Part shown: piece after piece, positions 33,710 to 53,559 of the stretch | Layout: every line of letters begins with the position of its first letter | How positions within the stretch are numbered: position 1 is the first letter of the stretch | Source of the DNA: Stieleria bergensis | GTDB lineage: Bacteria; Planctomycetota; Planctomycetia; Pirellulales; Pirellulaceae | Direction of reading: 5' to 3' | NCBI GenBank assembly: GCA_007745635.1 | Contig: CP036272.1 | Span: 2,089,900-2,153,899 of the forward strand | Length of the DNA stretch: 64,000 nt | The notes under the pieces: model-generated | Database searches by the model: none | Seen by the model: only the letters and a program-made list of their open reading frames with translations | What the model was told of the DNA's origin: nothing | Made by a program: the position numbers and the translations under genes

Positions 33710-35737
33710 ATGGAAAATAATCGCGAAGAACCGGACGCGAAAAACACCCCGCCTCGGCGACACAATAGCTTTTTGATCTTGGCCGTCTTGATGATGGTTT
33801 TGATGCTGTTGTTTGTCAGGTCAGGAGAAACCGGATCGAAGATCACCACCAGCCAGTTCTACGAACAGCTGGACAAGAACAACATCGCCAGTGTGTCCAT
33901 CGACACCAGCCAGCAGCGCGTGACCGGTACGTTCAACGATCCACCTGATGCCACCAAGCTAGAGAAAGGCGTCGTCACCGTCCAAAAAGACAGTGACGGA
34001 AAAGCCATCAAGCTAAACAAGGACTTCTACTTCAACGTTCAGTCCGATCAGTACATTACGCGCATTCAAGAGAAGCTCGAAGAGACCGATGTGCAGTGGG
34101 GGGAAACTCCTCCCGACACGACCCAGCAGATCATCAGTTTGCTCATCTTTGTCGGTTTGCCGATCGGCATTTTGGTCTTCGTCTTCCTGATGATCCGTCG
34201 CACGCGAAACGACATCATGGGCGGTGGATTCCTGTCAGGGTTCGGCAAGAGCCCTGCCAAGCGATTTGAAGCTCACGAAAAAACGGTCTCATTCAAAGAC
34301 GTTGCAGGATTGGAAGGTGTTAAGGCCGACCTCCAGGAAATCGTTGACTTCCTAAAGACCCCTGAGAAATTCCGCAAGCTTGGCGGACGGGTGCCCAAAG
34401 GGGTGCTGCTCAATGGCTCTCCAGGGACCGGTAAAACTCTGCTCGCCAGAGCGGTTGCCGGTGAAGCAGAGGTGCCGTTCTTCTCCGTCAATGGGAGTGA
34501 ATTCATCCAAATGTTCGTTGGCGTGGGGGCCAGCCGAGTTCGCGATTTATTCCAAACTGCGAAACAGCAAAGTCCCAGCATCATCTTCATTGATGAAATC
34601 GACGCCGTCGGTCGTCAGCGTGGTGCTGGATTAGGTGGCGGTCATGATGAACGTGAGCAGACCTTGAACCAAATTCTTGGTGAAATGGACGGCTTCACGC
34701 CCAGCCAGGCGGTGATTGTGATCGCCGCGACCAACCGCCCCGATGTCTTGGACCCTGCTCTGCTGCGTCCCGGTCGCTTTGACCGTCACATCACAGTCAA
34801 TCGGCCAACGTTGAAAGGCCGCGAAGAGATCTTCAAGGTTCACGTTCGCGAAGTGCCTTTGGCGGATGACGTCAAGCTTGATCGTTTGGCTGCTGGAACC
34901 ATTGGTCTGACCGGTGCAGACATCCAAAACATGGTGAATGAAGCGGCGCTCTGGGCGGCCCGTCATGATAAGAAAGAAGTCAGCATGGAAGACTTTGACA
35001 ATGCTCATGACAAAATCTTGATGGGTGCCAAACGCGAGGAGGTGCTGCGTGGAATCGAAAAGGAAAAAACGGCCTATCACGAAGCCGGTCACACCCTGAC
35101 TGCCTGGCACTTAGACGGCGCGCACACGGTGCACAAAGTCACCATCATTCCACGTGGCCGTGCCTTAGGCGTCACCCAGTATGTGCCCAATGAAGATCGC
35201 CTGAACATCAGTAAGAAGGAACTGGAACACCAGCTGATCGTCTTGCTCGGTGGTCGAGCTGCTGAACAAATCATTTACGATGAGCCCACCGTTGGCGCAG
35301 AGAATGATTTGGAACGTGCCACCAGCATCGCCCGCCGTATGGTGACGCAGTGGGGCATGAGCGACAAACTTGGGCCGGTCTGCTACAAAACTTCTGAAGA
35401 AGATCCGTTTTTGGGACGCGAAATGCACCAGTCGCGGCAGTTCAGCGAGCACACCCAAGAACTGATCGATGCCGAGGTCGCGGCGATTCTCATGGAGGCC
35501 GACAAGAAAGCCATCGATCTGCTCTCGAAGTATCGGGACGACTTGGAAACGTTGACCCGTTGCCTGATCGAGAAGGAAGAGCTCAATGAGGAAGAGATTT
35601 GCGACCTGATCGGCCCTTCGATCCAAAGACTGATGGCCGAAAAGGAAAAGGCAGCACAGGACGAAGCTTCGCCAGAGAGCTCTGCCGTTGATCCAACGGA
35701 AGAAGATCAAGCAGACCAAAGCAGCAGCGTCTCATGA
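33710..35737 (+). CDS. ftsH: ATP-dependent zinc metalloprotease FtsH
   Basis: 675 residues, inner-membrane AAA+ protease that removes damaged or regulated membrane and soluble proteins. Two transmembrane segments (about 21-37 and 142-161) bracket the periplasmic domain. The AAA module has Walker A GSPGTGKT (236-243), pore motif FVG, Walker B IIFIDE (291-296) and the second region of homology ([18 protein letters not shown]). The M41 protease site is HEAGH (457-461), with a third ligand probably the Asp of ENDLERAT. The C-terminus is acidic. It follows a 773-bp gene-free region and is followed by a strong hairpin before the ferredoxin-like gene. No key residue is missing. Confidence 0.97.
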
Positions 35738-40516: not shown

Positions 40517-43500
40517 TCATGACGGGGTTGCTGGCGGCGGTGGCGGCGCTGGGGCGCCGTCGGGAGCGGCCGATAGCAGGGAACTCTCCATGCTTTTGCA
40601 CTGCTCCTCAAAGGCCTCCAGCTGCTCACGCAACCGACTGAGGTCTTTTCCAGTGTCCAGCGATTCGTCCAGAATCGGGCGCAACCATTCCTGCATCAAG
40701 TGGAATTGTCCTTTGACCAAATCGACTAACACGCGCGGTACCTTGTGCTGCACAAAGACACGTTGATCTGGGGGCTCCTGCGTCGCTTGTTGTTTGCCCA
40801 GTTGCTCGATCTGCTGACCGGTCGAACGCAGCGTGTCGGTAATCTCGGTAGCGGATGAACTCAGGCTATGGCGCAAGGCGTCCATTCGCTGGTCCATTCG
40901 TTCTTCGGTCGCGTCTCGGCCGATGGCAACTGCTTTGGAGATCACGGCGCGGATGGATTCCAAGCCATCTCGCATCGACGCCAATTGACGCATCAGCTGA
41001 CCTGCCTGGTCGTCACTGTCCATGCCTTGCATGCGAGTCGATTCGACGAAGGAGTACTTGATGCTATCCCAGCGTTCTTGCTCTTCGGCGGTCAGGATGC
41101 CCATCAGTTCTTTGAACTTCAGCACATTGGCTTCGTTGTCGGTTGTCAGCGTTTGAGCGTCCTGTTCGTAGCTGCTGACGATCAGTGATTGCAACTCTTG
41201 TTGATTCATCACACCGGCAACCTTCTCGGCGATACGATTCATATTCCGATAGCTACCCTGCAGCTTAAACGGTGGTTCGGTCCGATAGGCGTCGGCTTGG
41301 GCAGCGCTGCGAATGTAGGCTCGGTTGACACGCAGCACCACGTCACGGACCTGCATCAGTTTGCGCATCACTTCAAACATGTCTCGGACTTGGTCCATCG
41401 ACAGGTTGCTTTTGATCTCAATGCCTTCCATGGTGTCACGTTGTGCAGCGCGAATGATGGCACGAGCATCTTCAGGGGCGGCTGATGAGAGCGGCGCGAG
41501 TGTGACGTTGCTGGTCAGGCAGTTTTCCAGGTAACTCATTTCGAAGGCGTCGGAGCTGTCGCCGATGATTTCACCCAGGTTATACACGTCGGCTCGGTTG
41601 GACAGCATGTCGGGGATCTGAAATCGCTCGCCGCTTTCAGTGTAGGGGTTACCCGCCATGACGACAGCGACGCGACGGCCACGCAGGTCATAGGTTCGCG
41701 TGCGACCTTTGTTGACACCTTCGATCTTTCGTGTCGCGTCACAGAGCGAAATGAACTTCTGCAAAAACTCAGGGTGCGTGTGCTGGATATCGTCCAGATA
41801 CAGCATCACATTATCGCCCATTTCTAAGGCCAAATTCAATCGTTCGACTTCTTCTTTGGCAGCCGCGTTGGGGGCCTCGGCAGGGTCGAGCGAGGTGACT
41901 TGGTGTCCAATCGCGGGGCCATTGATTTTCATGAACACCAAACCAAGTCGGTTGGCGATGTATTCCATCAACGTTGTTTTGCCGTAACCCGGTGGGCTGA
42001 TCAGCAACAGCAAACCCATGCGGTCGGTGCGTTTGTTTTCGCCTGCGGCGCCCATTTGTTTGGCAAGGTTGTCACCGATTAAGGGCAGGTAGACTTCGTC
42101 CAGCAACAGGTTCCGCACAAAGCTGGTCAAGACACGGGGCTTGAACTCGTCCAGTCGCATTTCATCACGAGACTGATCGACCAAGTGATTCTTGGTTTTA
42201 TGCAAGGCTCTAAAGCGAGGCACAACATCTTGCCGGTATTCGTTGAGGCGTTGTGACAGTTGATGGTAGTGAACCACCATCTTGCCCTGCTCAATGCGTG
42301 GATGGCTGCCCACTAATCCTTCCAATTGAATGGCGGTCTGCGATTCGATCGTCTTGGTGTTCGTCGTGCCACCGATCAGGATGATCCAGGCGAGTTCATT
42401 CAAATAGAGTTCGGGTGGATCAATCGCATCGGGCTGGCCATGTGAATCCAGATAAGCCTGCGCCCAGTTGCGCGCCAAGACAAAGGACTTGGTGATGTCG
42501 GACGACGTGGTTTTTAGAGCGGCATCGAGTAGGGTTTGGCGATCGCTGGTTGCCACCGAATCCAGGAAGTCTTGGAATAACTCGGTGGCCCGTTTGCTGA
42601 TCGCCGTCTTGCGGCCAGAGCTGATCAGTTCTTCGAACAGGTAATCGGCGATGCCCTGTTCTGTCACCGACGCATCGAACAGTGTTTGCCACTGATCGCG
42701 ATCATCTGCGGCAAGTCGAGTCAGGCGATCGCGGAAGTCCTGGGCTGGTTTGGCTTTGGGATAGGCTTTGGCCAGTTTTGCGAAGCCGGCGATCCAGTCC
42801 GACATCGCCTTACGAGTCTTGGGGATCAGGATTTTGTTGAACCATAGCAAGGCGGCAACGCGCGTCGTCGCAGGATGGCTTAGCAGGCTCATCGTTTCAT
42901 CGATCTGCGCCATCGCCTTCAAGATCATTGCCGCGTCGTGGTCGTGCACCCCTTTGGCGTAGCCTTCGTCGAAGCGTCCGCCCCATTGCGACTGAACCCA
43001 AGCGGCATCAATTTGATCGGCTTTGGGAAGCGTGCCAGCGTTGCCAGCGGACAGGAACAAGTCGCCGGCCAGGTATTCAGCCCGATAGAGCGAACTGTTC
43101 TCGCTGACCAGTTCTTGGTCCCAAAGATCCTTGGCTTCGGTCAGCGCGGGATCGACCAGGGGCTCGAAGAACTGCGTCCCCGTTAAGTGCAAGCAAATCT
43201 GGCCGTCACGCAAGACGGTAGTTAAATCCAAGGGTTGCGTGTTGACAGCGAAACGTTGCTTGCCCAGACGGATGATGTCTCCGCCGTCTTCGTACAGCTC
43301 TTGACGGTCCTTGAGCTGTCGCAGTGAGTCTTCGCGAATGGTTTTGAGGCGGCTTTGCAAGTCTCCGACACGAACGGCGTCATCCATCTCTTGCAATTGG
43401 TCGATGATGTCACGGACCTTTTCGACCATCAAGTCGCCGGCGAAGTAGGCGGCGATATCATCCGCTGAATCCATGGCGCGAACGCGATTGTCGATTCCTT

Positions 43501-45799
43501 TTAGGATGCGACTGGCGGCCGAGGCCAGCGACTCTGCGCGGCGGTTGCGTTTTTCGATCAGCTGGACTTTGCGTGATTCAAAGGCAGCATAGACCTCTTC
43601 GCGGCGGACGGCGATTTTCTCCAAAAAGTCATCGAACTCGGCGAACCGACCTTCGAGATCTTCCAGCTGGACCATGATCTTGGTCAGGTATTCGTCACAG
43701 CGTTCGGGAGTTTCGCTGACGTCGAGGTAGCCAGCGGTGGTTTGTTCCAAGAGCTTCAATTGCGAGGCGAACTCTGCCCTGCCCTCAGCGCCGACCAGTT
43801 CCGTGGTGCGCGCCTTAAGTGAACTGCGGACGCGATTCACGCTGGCGAACACTTCGCCAATGGCGTCGATGATTTCCGTTCGTTTGGTGGCGTCGTCGAT
43901 CCGCAGGTTGCTGACGGTTTCGGTCAGCATTTCCAATTGAGATGCAGCGGCATCGATCTTTTCGCCAAGCGTTTTGGATTCAGTGGCGGTGCCAACGGTT
44001 GCGACTTGTTGGGAGGCTTCTTCGACTCGTTGAATGTAGGGATCTAGCGATCCTGGTGTGAGCAGGAAGTCGACGCAGCGGCGGCTGAGACGTTCGCTGC
44101 GTTCAGCGGTTTCCGTTTCCAGTTGCTCGGCCAGCGTCTCGTCAACGTAACGCAGTTCCCTCAAGCCTAAGGCGTGTCCGCGTTGCTGACGTAACTGCGC
44201 CAGCATGTCGACGAAGTCATCGATACTTTCGAAGCGACTGCGTTCGATTTGTTTAAACAGGTCCGCAATCGTTTTCTGGACGTGCTTGGTTTGCGATTCT
44301 GTTTCCCGCCGAACACGAACGACTTTGTCAAATTCTTCGACCGCTGCGTTAGAGGCATCGCGAATCTTGGCAACGGGAACGGCCAGCGCGCCGGCTTCCT
44401 CTTTCTCAATCCAGAAGTAGCTGTCGAGGATGTCGGAGGTTTTCTTGCCCAGGTCGACGTACAGCCCTTCGTAGCTGTCGTCTTTATCAATCAGTTGTAA
44501 GACTTCGCTGCATTCTGCCATCCCTTGGACGATTTCTTTGTTGCCAATTTTGAACAACATGGAATCGGTTTGATTTTCGGCAACGTAGTTTGGCCCGGTA
44601 AACGGGGTCTGCCAGATCTGAACGGCATGATGCTTTTGTGGATCTTCTTGAGCTCGAAAGCAGACCATTTCGCCTTTTTCAAAAAACGTCTGCCCGTGGC
44701 AGATCAAGGGCGTGTCAACGGTCTGATTGATCAAGTTGTAACGCAGTTGGACGTAGATGCCAGACTTCTGCGAATAGAACACGTACAGAAAATCTTCGCC
44801 ATTGGACGCGGCGATGGTGCGCTGATAGCGCATATCATTCATGCCGGTGTCAAAGCGTTTGAATTCGCCGGTCTGCAAGTAGTAGCCACCGGGAAAGATC
44901 AGGCCTTGGTCGCCGGGCAGCATCACGCAGGCATCGGCGATTTCGTCAAGTCGAATGGCTTGCTGAATCTTGCGGTTGTAAACCAAGTACCGCGTTTGGG
45001 TTTCTTGATAAGGCGTGATCTTGAACAGGACCAAGTTACCAAGAATCGCGTAGTGGATCTCGGCATCGTCAAGTTTCTGATCAGGGTTGTCGACCGGTTC
45101 AGCATAGATGCCTTCGCCGGAACCCGTGTTGTTTTCGACCTTGATCGTCAAGTCACCGCCGACGGTTTCAACAAAGACGATGTCGTCGATGGAAATGTGC
45201 GGGTGGTCACCGTAGCGATGCTGGTCACGATTGGTTCTTAGCCAGCGGAATTCGTGCTGCGGTGGTTGTTTGACTTCATGCTCACTGCGATTGTCGAGGT
45301 ATTCGATTGCAGTTGGTGAGACCCGCCATTTGAAGGTTTTGATATCGCGTTCGGTTTTTCCAACTTGAAAAACCATGTGCAACATCGGGCCCGCTCGAAA
45401 GAATCGCAGGAACCGAGTGTCTTTGTAAAAGCGATACAGTTCGCCGAAGTCATTGTGGAATCGGTCGTCGCCCACTAAGTCCAGCGATTCGGTGTGGAAC
45501 TGATTATCGGAGAAGCGATACGCCGAGAAAACGTCGCGGAGCCCAATCTCCGTTTTCAGGCCAAACTGGACGTTGTAACCAAAAAGAAAATGATCTCCGA
45601 TCGAGACGATATCACGCGGGATACAGTTGTGTTCTGTGGTGACGCGCTCGGTCGCGATCAGCTTGGTTTCAATATTGCCGAAGACATCGGCGCGAGATTG
45701 ATTCAAGGTGCCGATTCGCTGACGCAAATCGTCTGCTGCATCACGCAATCGATTGCGTAAGACTTCGTAGGTGCCGGCAGCAAGTTGGGAATCAGTCAT
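40517..45799 (-). CDS. Giant AAA+ ATPase (DUF3686, 'DNA repair ATPase' family) of the flotillin operon
   Basis: 1760 residues. The N-terminal third matches the DUF3686-type proteins (LAAGTYEVLRNRLRDA, then RADVFGNIETKLIATERVTTEHNC, then FGYNVQFGLK). A central part of about 500-900 is mostly helical with coiled coil. An AAA+ domain follows with Walker A SPPGYGKT (about residue 1271), Walker B VMLYLDDIQH (about 1330) and MAGNPYTESGERFQIPDMLSNRAD as the sensor region. The C-terminus is again helical and ends Pro-rich. Databases name this family a DNA repair ATPase, a label with little evidence; its constant neighbours are flotillin and NfeD/YqiJ-like genes, suggesting membrane stress or remodelling. 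The start at 45799 is 277 bp from the flotillin stop. Confidence 0.8.
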   Translation of the reverse strand: MTDSQLAAGTYEVLRNRLRDAADDLRQRIGTLNQSRADVFGNIETKLIATERVTTEHNCIPRDIVSIGDHFLFGYNVQFGLKTEIGLRDVFSAYRFSDNQFHTESLDLVGDDRFHNDFGELYRFYKDTRFLRFFRAGPMLHMVFQVGKTERDIKTFKWRVSPTAIEYLDNRSEHEVKQPPQHEFRWLRTNRDQHRYGDHPHISIDDIVFVETVGGDLTIKVENNTGSGEGIYAEPVDNPDQKLDDAEIHYAILGNLVLFKITPYQETQTRYLVYNRKIQQAIRLDEIADACVMLPGDQGLIFPGGYYLQTGEFKRFDTGMNDMRYQRTIAASNGEDFLYVFYSQKSGIYVQLRYNLINQTVDTPLICHGQTFFEKGEMVCFRAQEDPQKHHAVQIWQTPFTGPNYVAENQTDSMLFKIGNKEIVQGMAECSEVLQLIDKDDSYEGLYVDLGKKTSDILDSYFWIEKEEAGALAVPVAKIRDASNAAVEEFDKVVRVRRETESQTKHVQKTIADLFKQIERSRFESIDDFVDMLAQLRQQRGHALGLRELRYVDETLAEQLETETAERSERLSRRCVDFLLTPGSLDPYIQRVEEASQQVATVGTATESKTLGEKIDAAASQLEMLTETVSNLRIDDATKRTEIIDAIGEVFASVNRVRSSLKARTTELVGAEGRAEFASQLKLLEQTTAGYLDVSETPERCDEYLTKIMVQLEDLEGRFAEFDDFLEKIAVRREEVYAAFESRKVQLIEKRNRRAESLASAASRILKGIDNRVRAMDSADDIAAYFAGDLMVEKVRDIIDQLQEMDDAVRVGDLQSRLKTIREDSLRQLKDRQELYEDGGDIIRLGKQRFAVNTQPLDLTTVLRDGQICLHLTGTQFFEPLVDPALTEAKDLWDQELVSENSSLYRAEYLAGDLFLSAGNAGTLPKADQIDAAWVQSQWGGRFDEGYAKGVHDHDAAMILKAMAQIDETMSLLSHPATTRVAALLWFNKILIPKTRKAMSDWIAGFAKLAKAYPKAKPAQDFRDRLTRLAADDRDQWQTLFDASVTEQGIADYLFEELISSGRKTAISKRATELFQDFLDSVATSDRQTLLDAALKTTSSDITKSFVLARNWAQAYLDSHGQPDAIDPPELYLNELAWIILIGGTTNTKTIESQTAIQLEGLVGSHPRIEQGKMVVHYHQLSQRLNEYRQDVVPRFRALHKTKNHLVDQSRDEMRLDEFKPRVLTSFVRNLLLDEVYLPLIGDNLAKQMGAAGENKRTDRMGLLLLISPPGYGKTTLMEYIANRLGLVFMKINGPAIGHQVTSLDPAEAPNAAAKEEVERLNLALEMGDNVMLYLDDIQHTHPEFLQKFISLCDATRKIEGVNKGRTRTYDLRGRRVAVVMAGNPYTESGERFQIPDMLSNRADVYNLGEIIGDSSDAFEMSYLENCLTSNVTLAPLSSAAPEDARAIIRAAQRDTMEGIEIKSNLSMDQVRDMFEVMRKLMQVRDVVLRVNRAYIRSAAQADAYRTEPPFKLQGSYRNMNRIAEKVAGVMNQQELQSLIVSSYEQDAQTLTTDNEANVLKFKELMGILTAEEQERWDSIKYSFVESTRMQGMDSDDQAGQLMRQLASMRDGLESIRAVISKAVAIGRDATEERMDQRMDALRHSLSSSATEITDTLRSTGQQIEQLGKQQATQEPPDQRVFVQHKVPRVLVDLVKGQFHLMQEWLRPILDESLDTGKDLSRLREQLEAFEEQCKSMESSLLSAAPDGAPAPPPPPATPS

Positions 45800-45940
45800 C
45801 GTTGTTGGCAGGCATGGGAATGTCTGTGCGGTGGATTGCCCGGCGGTTCAACTTGATGGATGAACGGCCTGCGGACAAACGCCTGGGCACATGAATCTCG
45901 CCAAGTGGTAGCGTGCGATCCAGTGCCCAGTGCTGTGAAT

Positions 45941-45980
45941 GGGGAGCCAGTGCTGTGAATGGGGAGCCAGTGCTGTGAAT
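45941..45980. repeat. 20-bp tandem duplication between flotillin and AAA+ genes
   Basis: GGGGAGCCAGTGCTGTGAAT occurs twice in a row; the preceding 20 bases (45921-45940) are a degenerate third copy that keeps the second half. It sits in the 277-bp gap and may mark the flotillin 3' end. Confidence 0.9.
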
Positions 45981-46076
45981 GGGCTGTCCCCGAGGGTCGG
46001 TGCCAGTGACCGACCTTTCAATGTCGGGCGGCGGTTCCATTCACGGTGGAATGGAACCGTTACCTGTTAGCCGGTT

Positions 46077-48200
46077 TTAGGCCTTTGGTGGAGGCGATAA
46101 AAGCGTGCCAGCTTTCTGCTGCGTGATGCCAGCGGTGGAGGCCATGCTGAGCAAGCTGGAGAGCTGCGAGCGGACGTCATCGGTGTTGGCCAGACCCAGC
46201 ATCTTGGCAATCAGAGCCGCGATGGAAAGGTCTTTCACGCTATCGCTATCCATGTTGAAGCTGCCCATCAATTCGTTCAGAGAATTGCTGAAGTACTCCG
46301 AGTTGCCATCAAAGAAGGTGTCTTTGATGTCGGTTGCCACGCGGCTGTTGTAAACGAACCGGTCGATGGCTTTACCGCCCTTGACCGCAGAGGTGATCTG
46401 GTCGAAGAACTCGCCGTCGCCACCGACGATGTCGATCCGAGCAGCTTTGAGTGCTTCGCTGACCACACCGGCTTGGCTTTCGGCAATGCCGCGTTGGGCA
46501 TCGATGGCTGCAATTTCGACGTCCTTTTCTTTGTTGAGTTGCAGCTTGAATTCTTCGTGTTCTTTGCCGACGCCGTCGAGAACTTTCATCGCTTCGGCCT
46601 TCTCGGTGATTCCCTTTGCTTCGCTGCGGTACTTTTCCAAGTCGACGTTGGCTTCGGCCAAACCTTGCTTTTCAATGGCACCGGCTTTCGCTTCAATGCC
46701 CTTGGCTTCCGCGACAGCCTTGGCTTGCAAGACGGTTGCTTCGGCGGAGCCTTCTTTTTCCAAGCTGACAGCTTTTGCTTCTTGGACGCGAGCTTCGGCT
46801 AGACCGGAAGCGGCGGCCTTGGCCGATTCTGCTTCGGCCAACATCTTGGTTGCAGCGGTTTCTTTCTCCGCAGCATCCTTTTGTGCCTCGGCTTCGATGC
46901 GAACCTTTTCAGCGAGTTGTTCAGACGCTTCTTTCTCGGCTTGAGCAGCCTTGGTCTGACGGATCAAGCCTTCTTCGGCTTCCATTTCAGCCGCGGTGAT
47001 TTGAACTTTCTTCAAACGATCCGCTTGCGCGATTTCTTCGGTGTCTTTGATGCGTTCCTTCTCTTCGACAACCGCACGTTCGACAGCGACACGCTCGCGA
47101 ATCACTTCTTGAATGTTGCGTTTTTCGACTTCGATGGCCTTTTCCTTTTCGACATCGGCGACGCCGACGACACGCATCCGCTCGGTGGCTTCCAAGTCAC
47201 GATCACGGGCAACACGTTCCAGTTCCACCGCGTCGGTTTTCTCTTTGTTTCGCTGTGCGACCAAGATCTGGCGGTCTTTATTTTCGTTTGCGACGCCCAA
47301 TTCTTCGTCGGTGGCAATGCGAGCCCGTTCCGCTTCCAGGCGTTGCTCTTCCTGGACCTTCTTGGCCGATGCACGTTCGCGAGCGGAAATTTCACTGATT
47401 TCACGCTGCTGCTTTTCAACGGCTTCAACACGTTGCCGTTCCAGTGCCAAGATCGTTTCCTCGGCTTCGACGTCTTGCTTTTTCAGCGTCTTTTCTTTGT
47501 CACGCGTAAACTGGTTTTCCTTGACCTTCTCTTGGGAGGTCAATTCGGTGATCTTCTTGATCCCTTCGGCGTCCAAAATGTTGGTTGGCGAAAGCAATTC
47601 GATCGGGGTTTGTTCCAGATAATCGATCGCGGCATCGTCTAGTTTGTAACCGTTTAGATCGGTACCGATAACCTTGAGGATCTCTGCCTTAAACTTGTCG
47701 CGTTCGTTGTACAGTTCGACGAAGTCAAATTGCTTACCAACGGTCTTCAGTGCTTCAGAGAACTTGGCGTCGAACAGTTCACGCAGCGTGTCGATTTCTG
47801 AACAGCGACGAGCACCGATCGAGGCCGCGACCTCAGCCATCTCTTCGAGCGAGCTGTCAACACGGATGAAGAAGGCAACCTTGATGTCGGCGCGAATGTT
47901 GTCGCGACAAATCAACCCTTCACTGCCTTGTCGCGAGATTTCAAAGCTCTTGAGCGACAAGTCCATGCGTTCAACCCGTTGGATCACCGGGACAACCATC
48001 ATGCCGCCACCAGTGACGACCTTTAGCTTGCCATAGCCGGTTCGCACGATGGCTTTGTCGGGACCGACAACCATGAAGCACTTCTTGATCATGCCCACGG
48101 CACCAAGAGCCAGCACAATGATGATGCCACCTCCCATTGCGTAATCTTGCACGTCGAGCGCAAGCAACGGACTAGCGGATAGGTCCAATAGAAGATTCAC
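46077..48200 (-). CDS. Flotillin / YqiK-like SPFH-domain protein
   Basis: 707 residues starting at a GTG. One N-terminal transmembrane segment (about 21-38, GGGIIIVLALGAVGM) is followed by an SPFH/PHB domain (about 45-230; MVVGPDKAIVRTGYG, then MDLSLKSFEISRQG), then a very long Glu/Lys/Ala coiled coil (about 235-590) and a short C-terminal domain ending in a Leu/Ser-rich segment. Flotillins oligomerise on the membrane and organise lipid domains; bacterial YqiK is the closest namesake. The GTG start overlaps the stop of the NfeD/YqiJ-like gene as GTGA, so the two are translationally coupled. The giant ATPase follows. Confidence 0.92.
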   Translation of the reverse strand: MNLLLDLSASPLLALDVQDYAMGGGIIIVLALGAVGMIKKCFMVVGPDKAIVRTGYGKLKVVTGGGMMVVPVIQRVERMDLSLKSFEISRQGSEGLICRDNIRADIKVAFFIRVDSSLEEMAEVAASIGARRCSEIDTLRELFDAKFSEALKTVGKQFDFVELYNERDKFKAEILKVIGTDLNGYKLDDAAIDYLEQTPIELLSPTNILDAEGIKKITELTSQEKVKENQFTRDKEKTLKKQDVEAEETILALERQRVEAVEKQQREISEISARERASAKKVQEEQRLEAERARIATDEELGVANENKDRQILVAQRNKEKTDAVELERVARDRDLEATERMRVVGVADVEKEKAIEVEKRNIQEVIRERVAVERAVVEEKERIKDTEEIAQADRLKKVQITAAEMEAEEGLIRQTKAAQAEKEASEQLAEKVRIEAEAQKDAAEKETAATKMLAEAESAKAAASGLAEARVQEAKAVSLEKEGSAEATVLQAKAVAEAKGIEAKAGAIEKQGLAEANVDLEKYRSEAKGITEKAEAMKVLDGVGKEHEEFKLQLNKEKDVEIAAIDAQRGIAESQAGVVSEALKAARIDIVGGDGEFFDQITSAVKGGKAIDRFVYNSRVATDIKDTFFDGNSEYFSNSLNELMGSFNMDSDSVKDLSIAALIAKMLGLANTDDVRSQLSSLLSMASTAGITQQKAGTLLSPPPKA

Positions 48201-48976
48201 GATTCAGTCTCCGGAGTAATCTCGACGACGGTATAGATCCGATTAGATGGGTCAAAGTCTATAATCCGCACTTTCGTTCCTTTCAGTAGTTCTGGACCGT
48301 TGGTGCGGATGTTCAGCAGTAGGGGAGCGGTATCCGTAGCAAACTTAGCTTGTCCGAAGGCGGACGAAGCATGGTGTGATGAAATAGTGCAGGTTTGACC
48401 CATCAGCCGTCTACTGTCGTAGTTGGGTGGTGGATTGAATTTGTCAGCCAGCGGCAATGTGAGGTATTTGGTGGCGACGACGGCGATCACAAAATTGCGA
48501 ATCGATAGTAGCGCCGATGGGAGCAACGTCGCTTCGTAACGACTGGCATCAAATTCATGCCAAATCACATACGAGGCCAACCAGAACATGAAGCTGAAGA
48601 TCCCCATCCAGATCACCATCGGCACGCGACCAAAGTTGGTCCAACGAACCGTGGTAGCCATGATGCCCGAGATGAATTCCAGCGTGCCAGGCTGAGCCAG
48701 GTCGATGTCAGGGCCGCCCATGTCCACCGTTCCTGCTTCCAGGTCCGGTGTGAATCCATCAGCGTCCAGCGACATGTCGCCGTCAATAGCGAGGTCTGCA
48801 TCCATGCCAAAATCAGCATCGACCGACATGTCCGCGTCGGGTGCGTTCATGTCCAAGTCGACTAGCCCTAACATGGCGATCAATGAATAAATCACCATCA
48901 AGCTAATCAACAGAGATGCTGGCCACACCGGGCCAACAAACATCCGCTCAAGCAACTCGTTCAGGGTTTCAGTCAC
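48197..48976 (-). CDS. YqiJ/NfeD-like membrane protein with OB-fold, upstream of flotillin
   Basis: About 259 residues from the GTG at 48976, chosen because a GGAACGAG element precedes it and because the protein then begins VTETLNELLERMFVGPVWPASLL, like YqiJ-type proteins. The frame continues upstream to 49300, but that part is not protein-like. The order is TM segment 1 (about 15-37), an acidic Asp/Met-rich insert (DADMSVDADFGMDADLAIDG and on, about 40-90), two or more TM segments, then an OB-fold with the RLMGQTCTISS block and the final KVRIIDFDPSNRIYTVVEI. NfeD/YqiJ proteins pair with flotillin at the membrane. The coding end overlaps the flotillin start by four bases. Confidence 0.8.
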   Translation of the reverse strand: MTETLNELLERMFVGPVWPASLLISLMVIYSLIAMLGLVDLDMNAPDADMSVDADFGMDADLAIDGDMSLDADGFTPDLEAGTVDMGGPDIDLAQPGTLEFISGIMATTVRWTNFGRVPMVIWMGIFSFMFWLASYVIWHEFDASRYEATLLPSALLSIRNFVIAVVATKYLTLPLADKFNPPPNYDSRRLMGQTCTISSHHASSAFGQAKFATDTAPLLLNIRTNGPELLKGTKVRIIDFDPSNRIYTVVEITPETES

Positions 48977-51251: not shown

Positions 51252-51914
51252 TCACTGTCGCCAGATCCATTGTTGGAACTGGTCCAGGATTTCTTGCTGG
51301 TTTTGGAACGATGTCCAAAGGCACCAACTGGCTAACACCGATGCGGTGATCAGCATGCCAAAGCCTTGTCGAGGCTTTGACGCGTCGCTCTGCTGGGTCG
51401 TGTTGCGCAAGTGTCCCAGCAAAGCATCCCAAAACTCGAAGGACAACACGGGACGAAAGGATTCAATCGTTGTGCTGTCTTTCTGGGTGGAGCCTGCTGG
51501 CCGTAACATGATGCTTTTTGATGGCAAAGCGACCTGGCCCAGTTTGCGATCACAGGTTGCCTGGGGATCAATTAGTAACGCCGCCTGATAGAGTGGTTCC
51601 AGCATGGCAGCCGGATCGCGACCAAAGACCACAATTCTGGGCCGCGATAACAACCCCGCCAAGCAGACAATCAGGCTGTAGAACGACAGCAGCGCCAGCC
51701 AGACCCAAGCGCCAAAGGTTCCCGCAGCAGCCTTGGGGAAAAATAATTCGCCAGGGCCGACAGCGATCAAGCCAGAAATCGCAAAGCCTAATGCGGCAAT
51801 GTCGCGACCACCGCTGGTGATCAACACGCGTCCCGAGACTCGGATCAAGCCCAGAACCATCAAGTAGGCAATCAATGGGAACAGGGCGACAATCAGGTAA
51901 AACGGTTCAATCAA
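51252..51914 (-). CDS. Hypothetical membrane protein
   Basis: 220 residues, no family recognised. Three hydrophobic segments occupy the N-terminal half (FYLIVALFPLIAYLMVLGLI; LGFAISGLIAVGPGELFF; WVWLALLSFYSLIVCLAGLL), and a fourth lies near the C-terminus (GMLITASVLASWCLW). A soluble loop of about 100 residues, with LEPLYQAALLIDPQATCDRKLG and FRPVLSFEFWDALLGHL, lies between. The gene is isolated, with the repeat array downstream and a 517-bp gene-free region upstream. The composition and frame are convincing; the role is unknown. Confidence 0.7.
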   Translation of the reverse strand: MIEPFYLIVALFPLIAYLMVLGLIRVSGRVLITSGGRDIAALGFAISGLIAVGPGELFFPKAAAGTFGAWVWLALLSFYSLIVCLAGLLSRPRIVVFGRDPAAMLEPLYQAALLIDPQATCDRKLGQVALPSKSIMLRPAGSTQKDSTTIESFRPVLSFEFWDALLGHLRNTTQQSDASKPRQGFGMLITASVLASWCLWTSFQNQQEILDQFQQWIWRQ

Positions 51915-52431
51915 TGTCTTCTCGTCGGTCGTTGGCCACGGTTCGTTGTGTTGTTCTATCAGCCGTTTTGGCGTTCGCCACGGTTACCATGACTTTCAGC
52001 GGGATCCAGGCCGGCGGCTCGCGCCGAATCCGCTAACCACCTGCGGTTCCGTCAGTCGAGGTTCGGTCACGGCTAAATCACAGTCCGGCAACAAAACGCC
52101 ACTTGGTTAGCTTAGTACCCTAACGCTGGTTCCGCCATGCCCCGCTGGTTGGTTGTACGCGGATTGCAGGGCCTGGGATCATTGAAAACCGATGAAAATC
52201 CATGGCAACAACTGGGCACTGCATCGCCCTGGGCTTGATCTGAGCAGCGGTCGAATCAGACGTTTTCCATCTCAGCGTGTTCTCCCCGGCTTCATCTAGC
52301 TTGCAGAATCCGATTCGATGCTTGTCCGAGTGCCCTCAGAGTGGCCGTTTGCAGCAATCCCTGTTTGAGCCCGCGATGGATTGGATCCGAACCAACTGTC
52401 AAACGACATTCTCTCTTCCACGGATGCACCA
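51915..52431. other. Gene-free region between divergent genes
   Basis: 517 bp. Copy 2 of the dispersed 21-bp motif (see 40467) is at 51958-51978. I see no other repeat, and no convincing frame. Promoters for both flanking genes must be here. Confidence 0.45.
51958..51978. repeat. Dispersed 21-bp motif, copy 2
   Basis: Identical over 21 bp to 40467-40487 and followed by (C)ACGGTT. It lies 44 bp beyond the start of the hypothetical membrane gene. Confidence 0.7.
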
Positions 52432-53559
52432 ATGTTATCATTCTGCAAAACCAAGTCTCGCGCGCTGGGAAAGATCTTCCTTGGCGTCTCCTGTCTTTTG
52501 GTTTCACTGAATCAAGCCGCCGACGTTGACGCTGTCCACCATGGTGATGACGCCGATCAGACTCCTGAAGTGTTAATGCTTGGCGACGGAGGCCTGTTGC
52601 AGCCGCAGGTTTTGGTGCGAGGCTCGCGGATCTTCTACATGGCGACTCACGCGTGGAAGGCTGGCGAGAACAATCCTGTGTTACCGACCGATCGCTTTAG
52701 TTTTCAAATCAATTCATTGCAAAACGTGGCAACGGGTCGTTCAGGAGCTGGTACTCGAACGGACGCCATTCAAGAGTTCCGCTTTCTTGCTGAGAAAACT
52801 CTCTTCGATGGCAACGTCTCCGTCGAGCTGTTGTTGCCGTTTTACAATACGACTCTTTACGAATCCAGTTCCCAGGCCGATTTCTCTCTGGGCAGTCAAA
52901 TCGACACGCAGTTTGGTGACTTGGGTTTTGGGGTCAAAGGGTTGTTGTTTAGCAATGGGAGTTCCGCGGTCAGTGCAGGTTTGCGAGTGGAAACACCGAC
53001 CAAAGATGACTATCGCATTTGGGATGATGTGCGTTCGGACGACAGCGTCTGGCACTTCACGCCCTACATCTCAGGACGCTGGGACAATCGCGAGAACTGG
53101 TTCGCCTCTGGCGTTCTCTCGTACCGCCTGAACGATAGCCCCTTTCGATCCTACGTGGTTGGTACCAGCAACGATGTGCTGCTGCGTGAGCCAGAGTACT
53201 TGGCGCTCGATGGCGCCTTAGGTTGCTGGTTGTGCAAACGAAACCATGGCAGTGGGCTGGCTGACGTCGCGGCCATGTTTGAAGTGCATTACACGTCGGC
53301 CAGTACCAGGCAGTCCAATCGTCCGGCGGGGGCATTGCAAGGCATTCCCACGAACAACAGCGACCTTGGCTACACTGACTATTTGAATCTAACGATTGGT
53401 TGCGCAGCCTACTTCGATGGCGGGCTGGAATATTCAGGCGGCTTTGCCTTCCCACTGCGCGACACGTTGACGCCGAGCGGTTCGGGAACGTCGTACATTT
53501 CCAGCACTGATCGCAGTTATAGCTGGGCGTTTGTTTCTAACGTTGGATGGCGATTCTAA
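52432..53559 (+). CDS. Outer-membrane beta-barrel protein
   Basis: 375 residues from the ATG at 52432; the frame opens earlier at a TTG (52381) without support. A Sec signal (about 1-28, ending LNQAADV) is followed by a chain of alternating amphipathic strands typical of barrels: FRFLAEKTLFDGNVSVELLLPF, FGVKGLLFSNGSSAVSAGLRVE, HFTPYISGRWDNREN, LADVAAMFEVHY, YLNLTIGCAAYFDGG, and a last strand WAFVSNVGWRF with the terminal aromatic residue used for outer-membrane insertion. Two Cys (CWLC) occur mid-way. A transport or porin role is likely; the solute is unknown. A shared hairpin separates it from the M13 peptidase. Confidence 0.8.
   Translation: MLSFCKTKSRALGKIFLGVSCLLVSLNQAADVDAVHHGDDADQTPEVLMLGDGGLLQPQVLVRGSRIFYMATHAWKAGENNPVLPTDRFSFQINSLQNVATGRSGAGTRTDAIQEFRFLAEKTLFDGNVSVELLLPFYNTTLYESSSQADFSLGSQIDTQFGDLGFGVKGLLFSNGSSAVSAGLRVETPTKDDYRIWDDVRSDDSVWHFTPYISGRWDNRENWFASGVLSYRLNDSPFRSYVVGTSNDVLLREPEYLALDGALGCWLCKRNHGSGLADVAAMFEVHYTSASTRQSNRPAGALQGIPTNNSDLGYTDYLNLTIGCAAYFDGGLEYSGGFAFPLRDTLTPSGSGTSYISSTDRSYSWAFVSNVGWRF

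What the first reader, a model, noticed from the sequence alone, without database searches (positions are those of the whole stretch)
40517..48976. NfeD/YqiJ, flotillin and giant AAA+ ATPase form a coupled membrane module
Seen: the OB-fold membrane protein and flotillin overlap as GTGA, and the 1760-residue AAA+ ATPase follows on the same strand. Known: YqiJ and YqiK pair in enterobacteria, and flotillin/NfeD pairs organise membrane domains. The ATPase family is labelled DNA repair without firm evidence. Inference: this is a three-part machine in which a cytoplasmic AAA+ protein remodels or senses a flotillin raft. The ATPase may be misnamed. An M50 protease just upstream could be regulated with it.
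Basis: partly seen in the sequence, partly recalled or inferred. Interest (0 to 1): 0.75.

Follow-up and report, generated by a model that had tools for sequence, protein, structure and literature searches.

The report
Flotillin operon with dedicated AAA+ ATPase
A planctomycete carries a conserved three-gene set - a small membrane protein, a flotillin scaffold and a giant AAA+ ATPase labelled 'DNA repair' without visible support - that stays together in the relatives examined and most likely maintains the cell membrane under stress; the gene set is already in print, but how it works is untested.

Summary
On the minus strand lie a YqiJ-type membrane protein (48197-48976), a flotillin (46077-48200, GTGA overlap) and a 1760-residue DUF3686 AAA+ ATPase (40517-45799). 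It is one flotillin class: in 294 planctomycete genomes 41 gave it, 39 have the ATPase and in 2 the contig ends there; 14 genomes gave the other class, none with the ATPase. I found no support for 'DNA repair'; envelope-stress genes flank 5 of 11 plasmid loci. The M50 protease is not part of the unit (8/84 loci).

The operon is not new: an mSystems 2024 paper (PMC11237479) describes band-7/flotillin + YqiJ + an AAA+ ATPase with coiled coil and beta-propeller, with or without PspA. Added here: pairing of the ATPase with one flotillin clade, an invariant Asp-Asp Walker B, YqiJ kept elsewhere when it leaves the operon, no recognisable PspA in this genome. Best reading: an ATP-driven flotillin assembly that remodels or clears membrane-bound clients; inferred. 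Fold comparison could not be run.

The parts
40517..45799 (-). AAA+ ATPase with N-terminal DUF3686, helical/coiled-coil middle and C-terminal AAA+ core (1760 aa)
   Evidence: SPPGYGKT, the two Walker B Asp, GNPY and the RA of NRAD invariant in 74 of 74 aligned sequences
44414..45730 (-). DUF3686 region (residues 24-462); predicted beta-rich, residues 46-397
   Evidence: Pfam PF12458 1e-191; AlphaFold2 model of residues 1-900, mean pLDDT 71.5, pTM 0.34
41783..42010 (-). AAA+ P-loop core matched by Pfam AAA (residues 1264-1339)
   Evidence: motifs SPPGYGKT from residue 1268 and LYLDDIQ from residue 1333
45927..45986 (.). three 20-bp tandem repeats in the 277-nt gap between flotillin and ATPase
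46077..48200 (-). flotillin with SPFH/Band_7 domain, class A (707 aa)
   Evidence: tree; class-specific residues
48197..48976 (-). YqiJ-type membrane protein with three hydrophobic stretches (259 aa, GTG start)
   Evidence: N-terminal MFVGPVWPAS shared with relatives L033, L037, L040
49290..50570 (-). M50 peptidase with CBS domain, upstream neighbour; judged NOT part of the unit
   Evidence: single-sequence profile matched in only 8 of 84 loci

Best explanation
The three genes make one membrane-maintenance machine. The flotillin assembles an SPFH scaffold on the inner face of the cytoplasmic membrane, the YqiJ-type protein anchors or seals it, and the AAA+ ATPase is that flotillin's dedicated ATP-driven partner: its N-terminal beta-rich domain and long helices dock on the scaffold or clients, and its AAA+ ring hydrolyses ATP to remodel, extract or release membrane-bound clients under envelope stress. 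It works like SPFH-AAA+ pairs such as HflKC-FtsH (recalled), without a protease domain. Shown: gene set, linkage in all testable loci, matching flotillin class, conserved ATPase motifs, envelope-stress neighbours in part of the loci. Inferred: physical complex, docking, ATP-driven remodelling.
For: Flotillin upstream of the ATPase, same strand, in 27/27, 11/11 and 38/38 loci with at least 2.5 kb upstream. Class-A flotillin in 41 of 294 planctomycete genomes: 39 with the ATPase, 2 whose contigs end within 270 bases of the flotillin match; 14 genomes gave class B only, 0 with ATPase. In the plasmid collection the 12 best of 311 flotillin records are the 12 ATPase records. A flotillin tree separates A (60 rows) from B (14 rows) by one branch, SH-aLRT 100. 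Four relatives lacking an adjacent YqiJ keep one elsewhere, 40-43% identical, with no flotillin match in the fetched flanks. ATPase motifs invariant in 74/74. ATPase and flotillin distances correlate, 0.79 over 47 loci, though shared descent alone would give some of this. Envelope-stress genes beside 5 of 11 plasmid loci: 'molecular chaperone Tir' and PspA, YjfI and PspA, TelA in two, PLD in one of these, TPM and LemA in one. FloA-NfeD of S. aureus holds unfolded proteins without ATP (PMC11222466, abstract read).
Against: No direct evidence of interaction, localisation or activity. Linkage is counted on related genomes, and outside Planctomycetota on 11 loci only. In 6 of those 11 I recognised no envelope-stress neighbour, though 2 of the 6 had no annotation and their frames were only read by eye, nor did I recognise one among the scanned window neighbours. 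The Streptomyces globosus locus has no YqiJ upstream, and I did not seek one elsewhere in it. The 277-nt gap leaves room for a separate ATPase promoter (none found by the sigma-70 scan, which may not suit this phylum). The N-terminal fold has moderate confidence and was not compared with known folds. Walker B has Asp where AAA+ motors usually have Glu (recalled), so hydrolysis could be slow or regulatory.
Confidence: 0.55

Rival explanations
1. PspA accessory module: the trio is the membrane-recruiting arm of a phage-shock-type response, and the ATPase remodels PspA (ESCRT-III-like) polymers at flotillin domains, as Vps4 does for ESCRT-III.
For: PspA is annotated beside the trio in Hymenobacter and pQBR103, and in 7 of 38 planctomycete loci PspA and/or its bis-AAA-type partner lies close by. 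Genomes with the ATPase have PspA by either profile in 33 of 39 cases against 51 of 255 others. PMC11237479 proposes that short operons may work with PspA encoded elsewhere.
Against: The window's own single-contig genome (96.47% complete) has no PspA over cut-off; its best PF04012 hit, 19.6 bits, is a frame with a lipoprotein-like start, the divergent-PspA profile found nothing at 1e-6 and the bis-AAA profile nothing at 1e-30, with 4 of 21 candidates scored. Co-occurrence partly follows families: in family f3 all 9 genomes with and all 7 without the ATPase that one search lists have PspA over cut-off. Class-B flotillins without the ATPase also lie near PspA in 6 of 14 genomes, one of them below cut-off.
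Confidence: 0.25
2. ATP switch rather than motor: the ATPase binds ATP and reports the membrane state held by the flotillin scaffold; slow hydrolysis resets it.
For: Walker B is Asp-Asp in 74 of 74; an Asp-Asp Walker B is, from memory, typical of DnaA, a slow switch ATPase. The large N-terminal domain and helices could be sensory.
Against: Sequence is nearest to p97/Rix7/NVL over the P-loop region; the other motifs look complete. A switch would need an output partner, and none is established.
Confidence: 0.15
3. DNA-repair ATPase as labelled.
For: Pfam description 'ATPase involved in DNA repair'; weak RuvB-type P-loop similarity; a LexA-family regulator lies upstream of the operon on the opposite strand in Hymenobacter, and two loci are from Deinococcus.
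Against: Beside a flotillin in every testable locus; no repair gene recognised by eye among the 14 largest neighbour clusters printed or, apart from that LexA-family gene, in the annotated plasmid loci; similarity to RuvB is limited to the P-loop stretch and far below the family cut-off (22.7 of 282 bits).
Confidence: 0.03

Closest known systems
Band-7/flotillin + YqiJ/YuaF + beta-propeller/coiled-coil AAA+ operons of PMC11237479 (mSystems 2024; Ravi et al., author name recalled)
   Same: same three gene products in one operon; the short form without PspA is described as more widely distributed
   Different: here the ATPase is seen to go with one flotillin clade; this genome has no recognisable PspA
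E. coli YqiJ-YqiK
   Same: YqiJ-type gene followed by flotillin gene, same order
   Different: YqiK falls in class B, is shorter (559-residue frame) and no ATPase gene is annotated next to it
HflK/HflC-FtsH (recalled)
   Same: SPFH assembly paired with a AAA+ ATPase at the membrane
   Different: no M41 protease match and no hydrophobic segment in the ATPase here
S. aureus FloA-NfeD (PMC11222466, abstract read)
   Same: flotillin-NfeD pair at membrane microdomains
   Different: reported as ATP-independent; the abstract names no AAA+ partner

Membership tests
Flotillin/YqiJ/beta-propeller-AAA+ operon (PMC11237479) | membrane-anchored Band-7 plus coiled-coil/flotillin protein | tested here: met
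   Band_7 2.3e-11, N-terminal hydrophobic stretch
Flotillin/YqiJ/beta-propeller-AAA+ operon (PMC11237479) | YqiJ/YuaF-type 3TM protein in the operon | tested here: met
   YqiJ_N 23.7 bits against cut-off 23 (marginal); three hydrophobic stretches
Flotillin/YqiJ/beta-propeller-AAA+ operon (PMC11237479) | AAA+ ATPase with N-terminal coiled coil | tested here: met
   Pfam AAA 31.2 bits, cut-off 21.2; long helices between 414 and 838 in the model
Flotillin/YqiJ/beta-propeller-AAA+ operon (PMC11237479) | beta-propeller at the N-terminus | tested here: inconclusive
   24 strands in residues 46-397 of a moderate model; no PDB sequence match up to E 10; fold search never ran
Flotillin/YqiJ/beta-propeller-AAA+ operon (PMC11237479) | CesT/Tir-PspA dyad (long form only) | tested here: not met
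   no such match among the nine window proteins scanned and no PspA over cut-off in the genome; the short form does not need it
DNA-repair ATPase | repair gene neighbourhood or repair-enzyme domain | tested here: not met
   5 of 11 unannotated; 14 largest clusters, read by eye; one LexA-family neighbour in Hymenobacter
HflKC-FtsH | M41 protease domain on the AAA+ partner | tested here: not met
   no M41 match
NfeD1b (ClpP-type NfeD) | ClpP-like protease domain on the NfeD partner | tested here: not met
   only YqiJ_N matched

The most novel reading that the evidence does not exclude
A separate clade of bacterial flotillins is an obligate ATP-driven machine: each has its own captive AAA+ ATPase and YqiJ partner, inherited and transferred as a unit across at least five phyla, and able to work without PspA, so that flotillin function splits into scaffolds without a motor (class B) and motor-driven ones (class A).
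Probability: 0.35. Interest if true: 0.7.

Novelty: new member of a known kind. Interest (0 to 1): 0.42.

Why it matters
What bacterial flotillins do is unsettled, and the one mechanism that I read of (S. aureus FloA, PMC11222466 abstract) is ATP-independent. A flotillin clade that is not seen without its own AAA+ ATPase would make ATP-dependent flotillin function directly testable, would correct a 'DNA repair ATPase' name used in annotation, and would give SPFH scaffolds a second AAA+ pairing beside FtsH.

Tried and rejected
M50 protease as a fourth member: its profile matched in 8 of 84 loci, all among the 35 close relatives and 0 of the 49 other loci; 7 of the 8 also share rbsD, so local synteny explains it. 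PspA independence as first drafted: my first profiles missed divergent PspA proteins; changed the count from 27 to 33 of 39 genomes. A recurring FtsH neighbour: the first cluster mixed a true FtsH (L095) with bis-AAA-type proteins, so FtsH is not a general neighbour. PADLOC hits (LmuB 3.9e-5 over residues 487-846, AbiEi 0.033) taken as coiled-coil cross-matches, by judgement. Phage carriage: no match in 50,697 phage records. E. coli carriage: no match by distant DNA search with 3,900 bases of the Proteus gene, which sees only DNA above roughly 65-70% identity. Rfam at gathering thresholds: only one tRNA in the window. Counts outside Planctomycetota rest on the plasmid collection only: a class-wide search around E. 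coli was not possible. Some of those 'plasmid' records are chromosome-sized.

Limits: loci sets overlap (L044 and L094 appear to be the same contig; L085 and L086 are nearly identical) and genomes are related, so counts are not independent. Of the 35 close relatives 8 have under 2.5 kb upstream: 2 of these (L036, L038) show the flotillin, 6 cannot be judged. Adjacency had no distance cap; it was measured between stop-to-stop frames and the largest gaps are 2651 (L040, where the ATPase frame is split) and 1402 (L083). L082, L105, L108, L113 and L114 hold partial ATPase frames. One search scored only the best 3 candidates per genome, so a genome could hold a further flotillin. The tree is a quick search with 8 of 29 close-relative flotillins; B is 13 planctomycete rows plus E. 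coli YqiK; L128, whose frame is broken by a stop, was left out; the tool warned that long branches meet in it, the A-B join included.
Full report
WHAT IS THERE. The window lies in a 7.1-Mb single-contig genome; its flotillin is closest to that of Planctomycetes bacterium TBK1r, 83% identical, among Pirellulaceae rows. Three minus-strand genes are confirmed: YqiJ-type protein 48197-48976, flotillin 46077-48200, DUF3686 AAA+ ATPase 40517-45799. The 4-base GTGA overlap is real, and an in-frame NTGA overlap is in 19 of 22 close relatives with an adjacent YqiJ, so translational coupling of these two is likely within this group; it is seen in 5 of 38 wider planctomycete loci and 0 of 10 plasmid loci. 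The ATPase starts 277 nt after the flotillin stop; the gap holds three 20-bp tandem repeats. The genome has one DUF3686 gene and four Band_7 matches, this flotillin among them.

DOES IT HOLD TOGETHER ELSEWHERE. It does not. I fetched 35 close relatives, 11 of 12 plasmid-collection hits (the twelfth is a second Proteus record) and flanks of all 38 other DUF3686 genomes found in the phylum sample. With at least 2.5 kb upstream, the flotillin was found on the same strand in 27 of 27, 11 of 11 and 38 of 38. With at least 3.3 kb upstream, the YqiJ-type gene was found in 22 of 26, 10 of 11 and 36 of 36. The plasmid-collection records belong to Bacteroidota, Actinomycetota, Pseudomonadota and Deinococcota. 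In the four close relatives without an adjacent YqiJ, a 40-43% identical YqiJ gene is present elsewhere in the genome, with no flotillin profile match in the fetched surroundings. For the one plasmid locus without YqiJ (L075) I did not look further.

THE FLOTILLIN IS A CLASS OF ITS OWN. Searching 294 planctomycete genomes with the window flotillin (E 1e-10, best 3 candidates per genome scored) gave 55 genomes in two well separated groups. Forty-one have a best match of 47% identity or more; these include all 39 DUF3686 genomes, and in the remaining two the contig ends 266 and 66 bases after the match, so the ATPase cannot be judged. Fourteen genomes gave only 28-33% matches; none has DUF3686, all 14 have a YqiJ-type gene beside the flotillin, and in 6 a PF04012 match lies close by on the same contig, one of these below cut-off. 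In the plasmid collection the 12 best flotillin records (33.6-51.6% identity) are the 12 ATPase records; the other 299 of 311, of which 48 were listed (28.8%), are not among the ATPase records. A quick tree of 74 flotillins puts 60 class-A and 14 class-B rows (13 planctomycete plus E. coli YqiK) on opposite sides of one branch, SH-aLRT 100; the tool warned of long branches meeting, the A-B join included. In class A the block FSEALKTVGK in the SPFH domain is kept in 90% or more of rows at each position, and a stretch near residues 465-530 is mostly gapped in class B. These are candidate contact sites for the ATPase, by inference only.

THE ATPASE. Over 74 aligned sequences (the window and others of at least 1480 aa) SPPGYGKT, the two Walker B aspartates, GNPY and the RA of NRAD are invariant; its D, and each letter of GSYR, are kept in 73. 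The second acidic residue of Walker B is Asp in all 74; that the usual residue is Glu, and that DnaA also has Asp-Asp, is recalled. By sequence the core is nearest to Rix7, NVL and p97, then RuvB, over the P-loop stretch. AlphaFold2 models from 29 close sequences give a beta-rich region at 46-397 (24 strands), helices from 414 to 838, a further helical region and the AAA+ part, at moderate confidence (mean pLDDT 71.5 and 72.8, pTM 0.34 and 0.44). This agrees with the beta-propeller and coiled coil named in PMC11237479, but the propeller was not verified: no PDB sequence match, and the fold search was busy throughout.

THE NAME. 'DNA repair' is Pfam's description of DUF3686, and 'DNA repair ATPase' or 'DNA repair protein' appears in plasmid annotation. 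I found little to support it: weak RuvB-type P-loop similarity and one LexA-family gene upstream on the other strand in Hymenobacter. Envelope-stress genes lie beside 5 of 11 plasmid loci: 'molecular chaperone Tir' and PspA in Hymenobacter, YjfI-PspA-DUF2491-DUF350-glutathionylspermidine synthase on pQBR103, PLD and TelA in Vibrio, TelA in Photobacterium, and LemA and TPM on the other strand near the Proteus copy. In the other six (two Streptomyces, two Deinococcus, Nonomuraea, Halomonas) I recognised none; the Streptomyces loci have cation/proton antiporters nearby.

PSPA. At genome level PspA over the Pfam cut-off is in 27 of 39 DUF3686 genomes and 48 of 255 others. Clustering the neighbours exposed divergent PspA-like proteins (PF04012 13-16 bits in 3 of 4 scanned, no match in the fourth) next to a protein with a C-terminal AAA domain, apparently the two-AAA-domain partner that PMC11237479 mentions. 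Adding these gives 33 of 39 against 51 of 255; the sixth addition, G040, is a weaker match. PspA and/or the bis-AAA-type gene lie near the trio in 7 of 38 planctomycete loci. Against a strict need for PspA: the window's genome has none by either profile; its best PF04012 hit (19.6 bits) is a frame with a lipoprotein-like start. Part of the co-occurrence follows family membership.

LITERATURE. PMC11237479 (mSystems 2024; sections 19 and 20 and found passages read; supplements not seen) describes this operon, including the short form 'in some cases' with the ATPase, and suggests that the short form might work with PspA encoded elsewhere. In what I read I saw no statement that the ATPase tracks one flotillin clade. 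Searches for DUF3686, YqiJ+YqiK+ATPase and 'DNA repair ATPase'+flotillin found no paper; a further one found only PMC11237479. NfeD-SPFH operon pairing is in PMC2636767 (passages read). Passages of PMC13086221 on P. aeruginosa SPFH genes hold the word ATPase 0 times. The library holds open-licence papers only.

VERDICT. Observation confirmed; three-part unit strongly supported by comparative genomics; mechanism inferred; gene set already described. The value added is the flotillin-class/ATPase pairing and the case without recognisable PspA, both testable.

Noticed in passing
window 45927-45986: Three 20-bp tandem repeats between flotillin and ATPase; a 17-base core has no other match in the window with up to 2 mismatches.
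   Followed up: partly
window 33710-35737: An FtsH-like gene (recognised by eye from the translation, not run against Pfam) lies on the plus strand about 4.8 kb from the ATPase end; no match to it showed in the 35 close-relative loci.
   Followed up: partly
L096, L098, L104, L114, L106 (flanks of the trio): Divergent PspA-like proteins below the Pfam cut-off beside a bis-AAA-type ATPase; in L106 (G288) the PspA was found by profile.
   Followed up: yes
L145 (G142:C89): Trio with an FtsH gene and three PF04012 matches around it in a 2.8-Mb planctomycete genome.
   Followed up: partly
L041, L042, L061, L063: YqiJ gene is not in the operon but elsewhere in four Rhodopirellula-type genomes, without a flotillin match in the fetched flanks.
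   Followed up: yes
L072, L074: TelA (toxic anion resistance) downstream of the ATPase in Photobacterium and Vibrio, with a PLD-like gene between in Vibrio.
   Followed up: partly
L066 4583-5368: LexA-family regulator divergent from the Tir-PspA-YqiJ-flotillin-ATPase operon in Hymenobacter.
   Followed up: no
window 51252-51914 and 52381-53559: Two neighbouring ORFs with no Pfam or NCBIfam match; the first has matches in 5 of the 35 close-relative loci.
   Followed up: no
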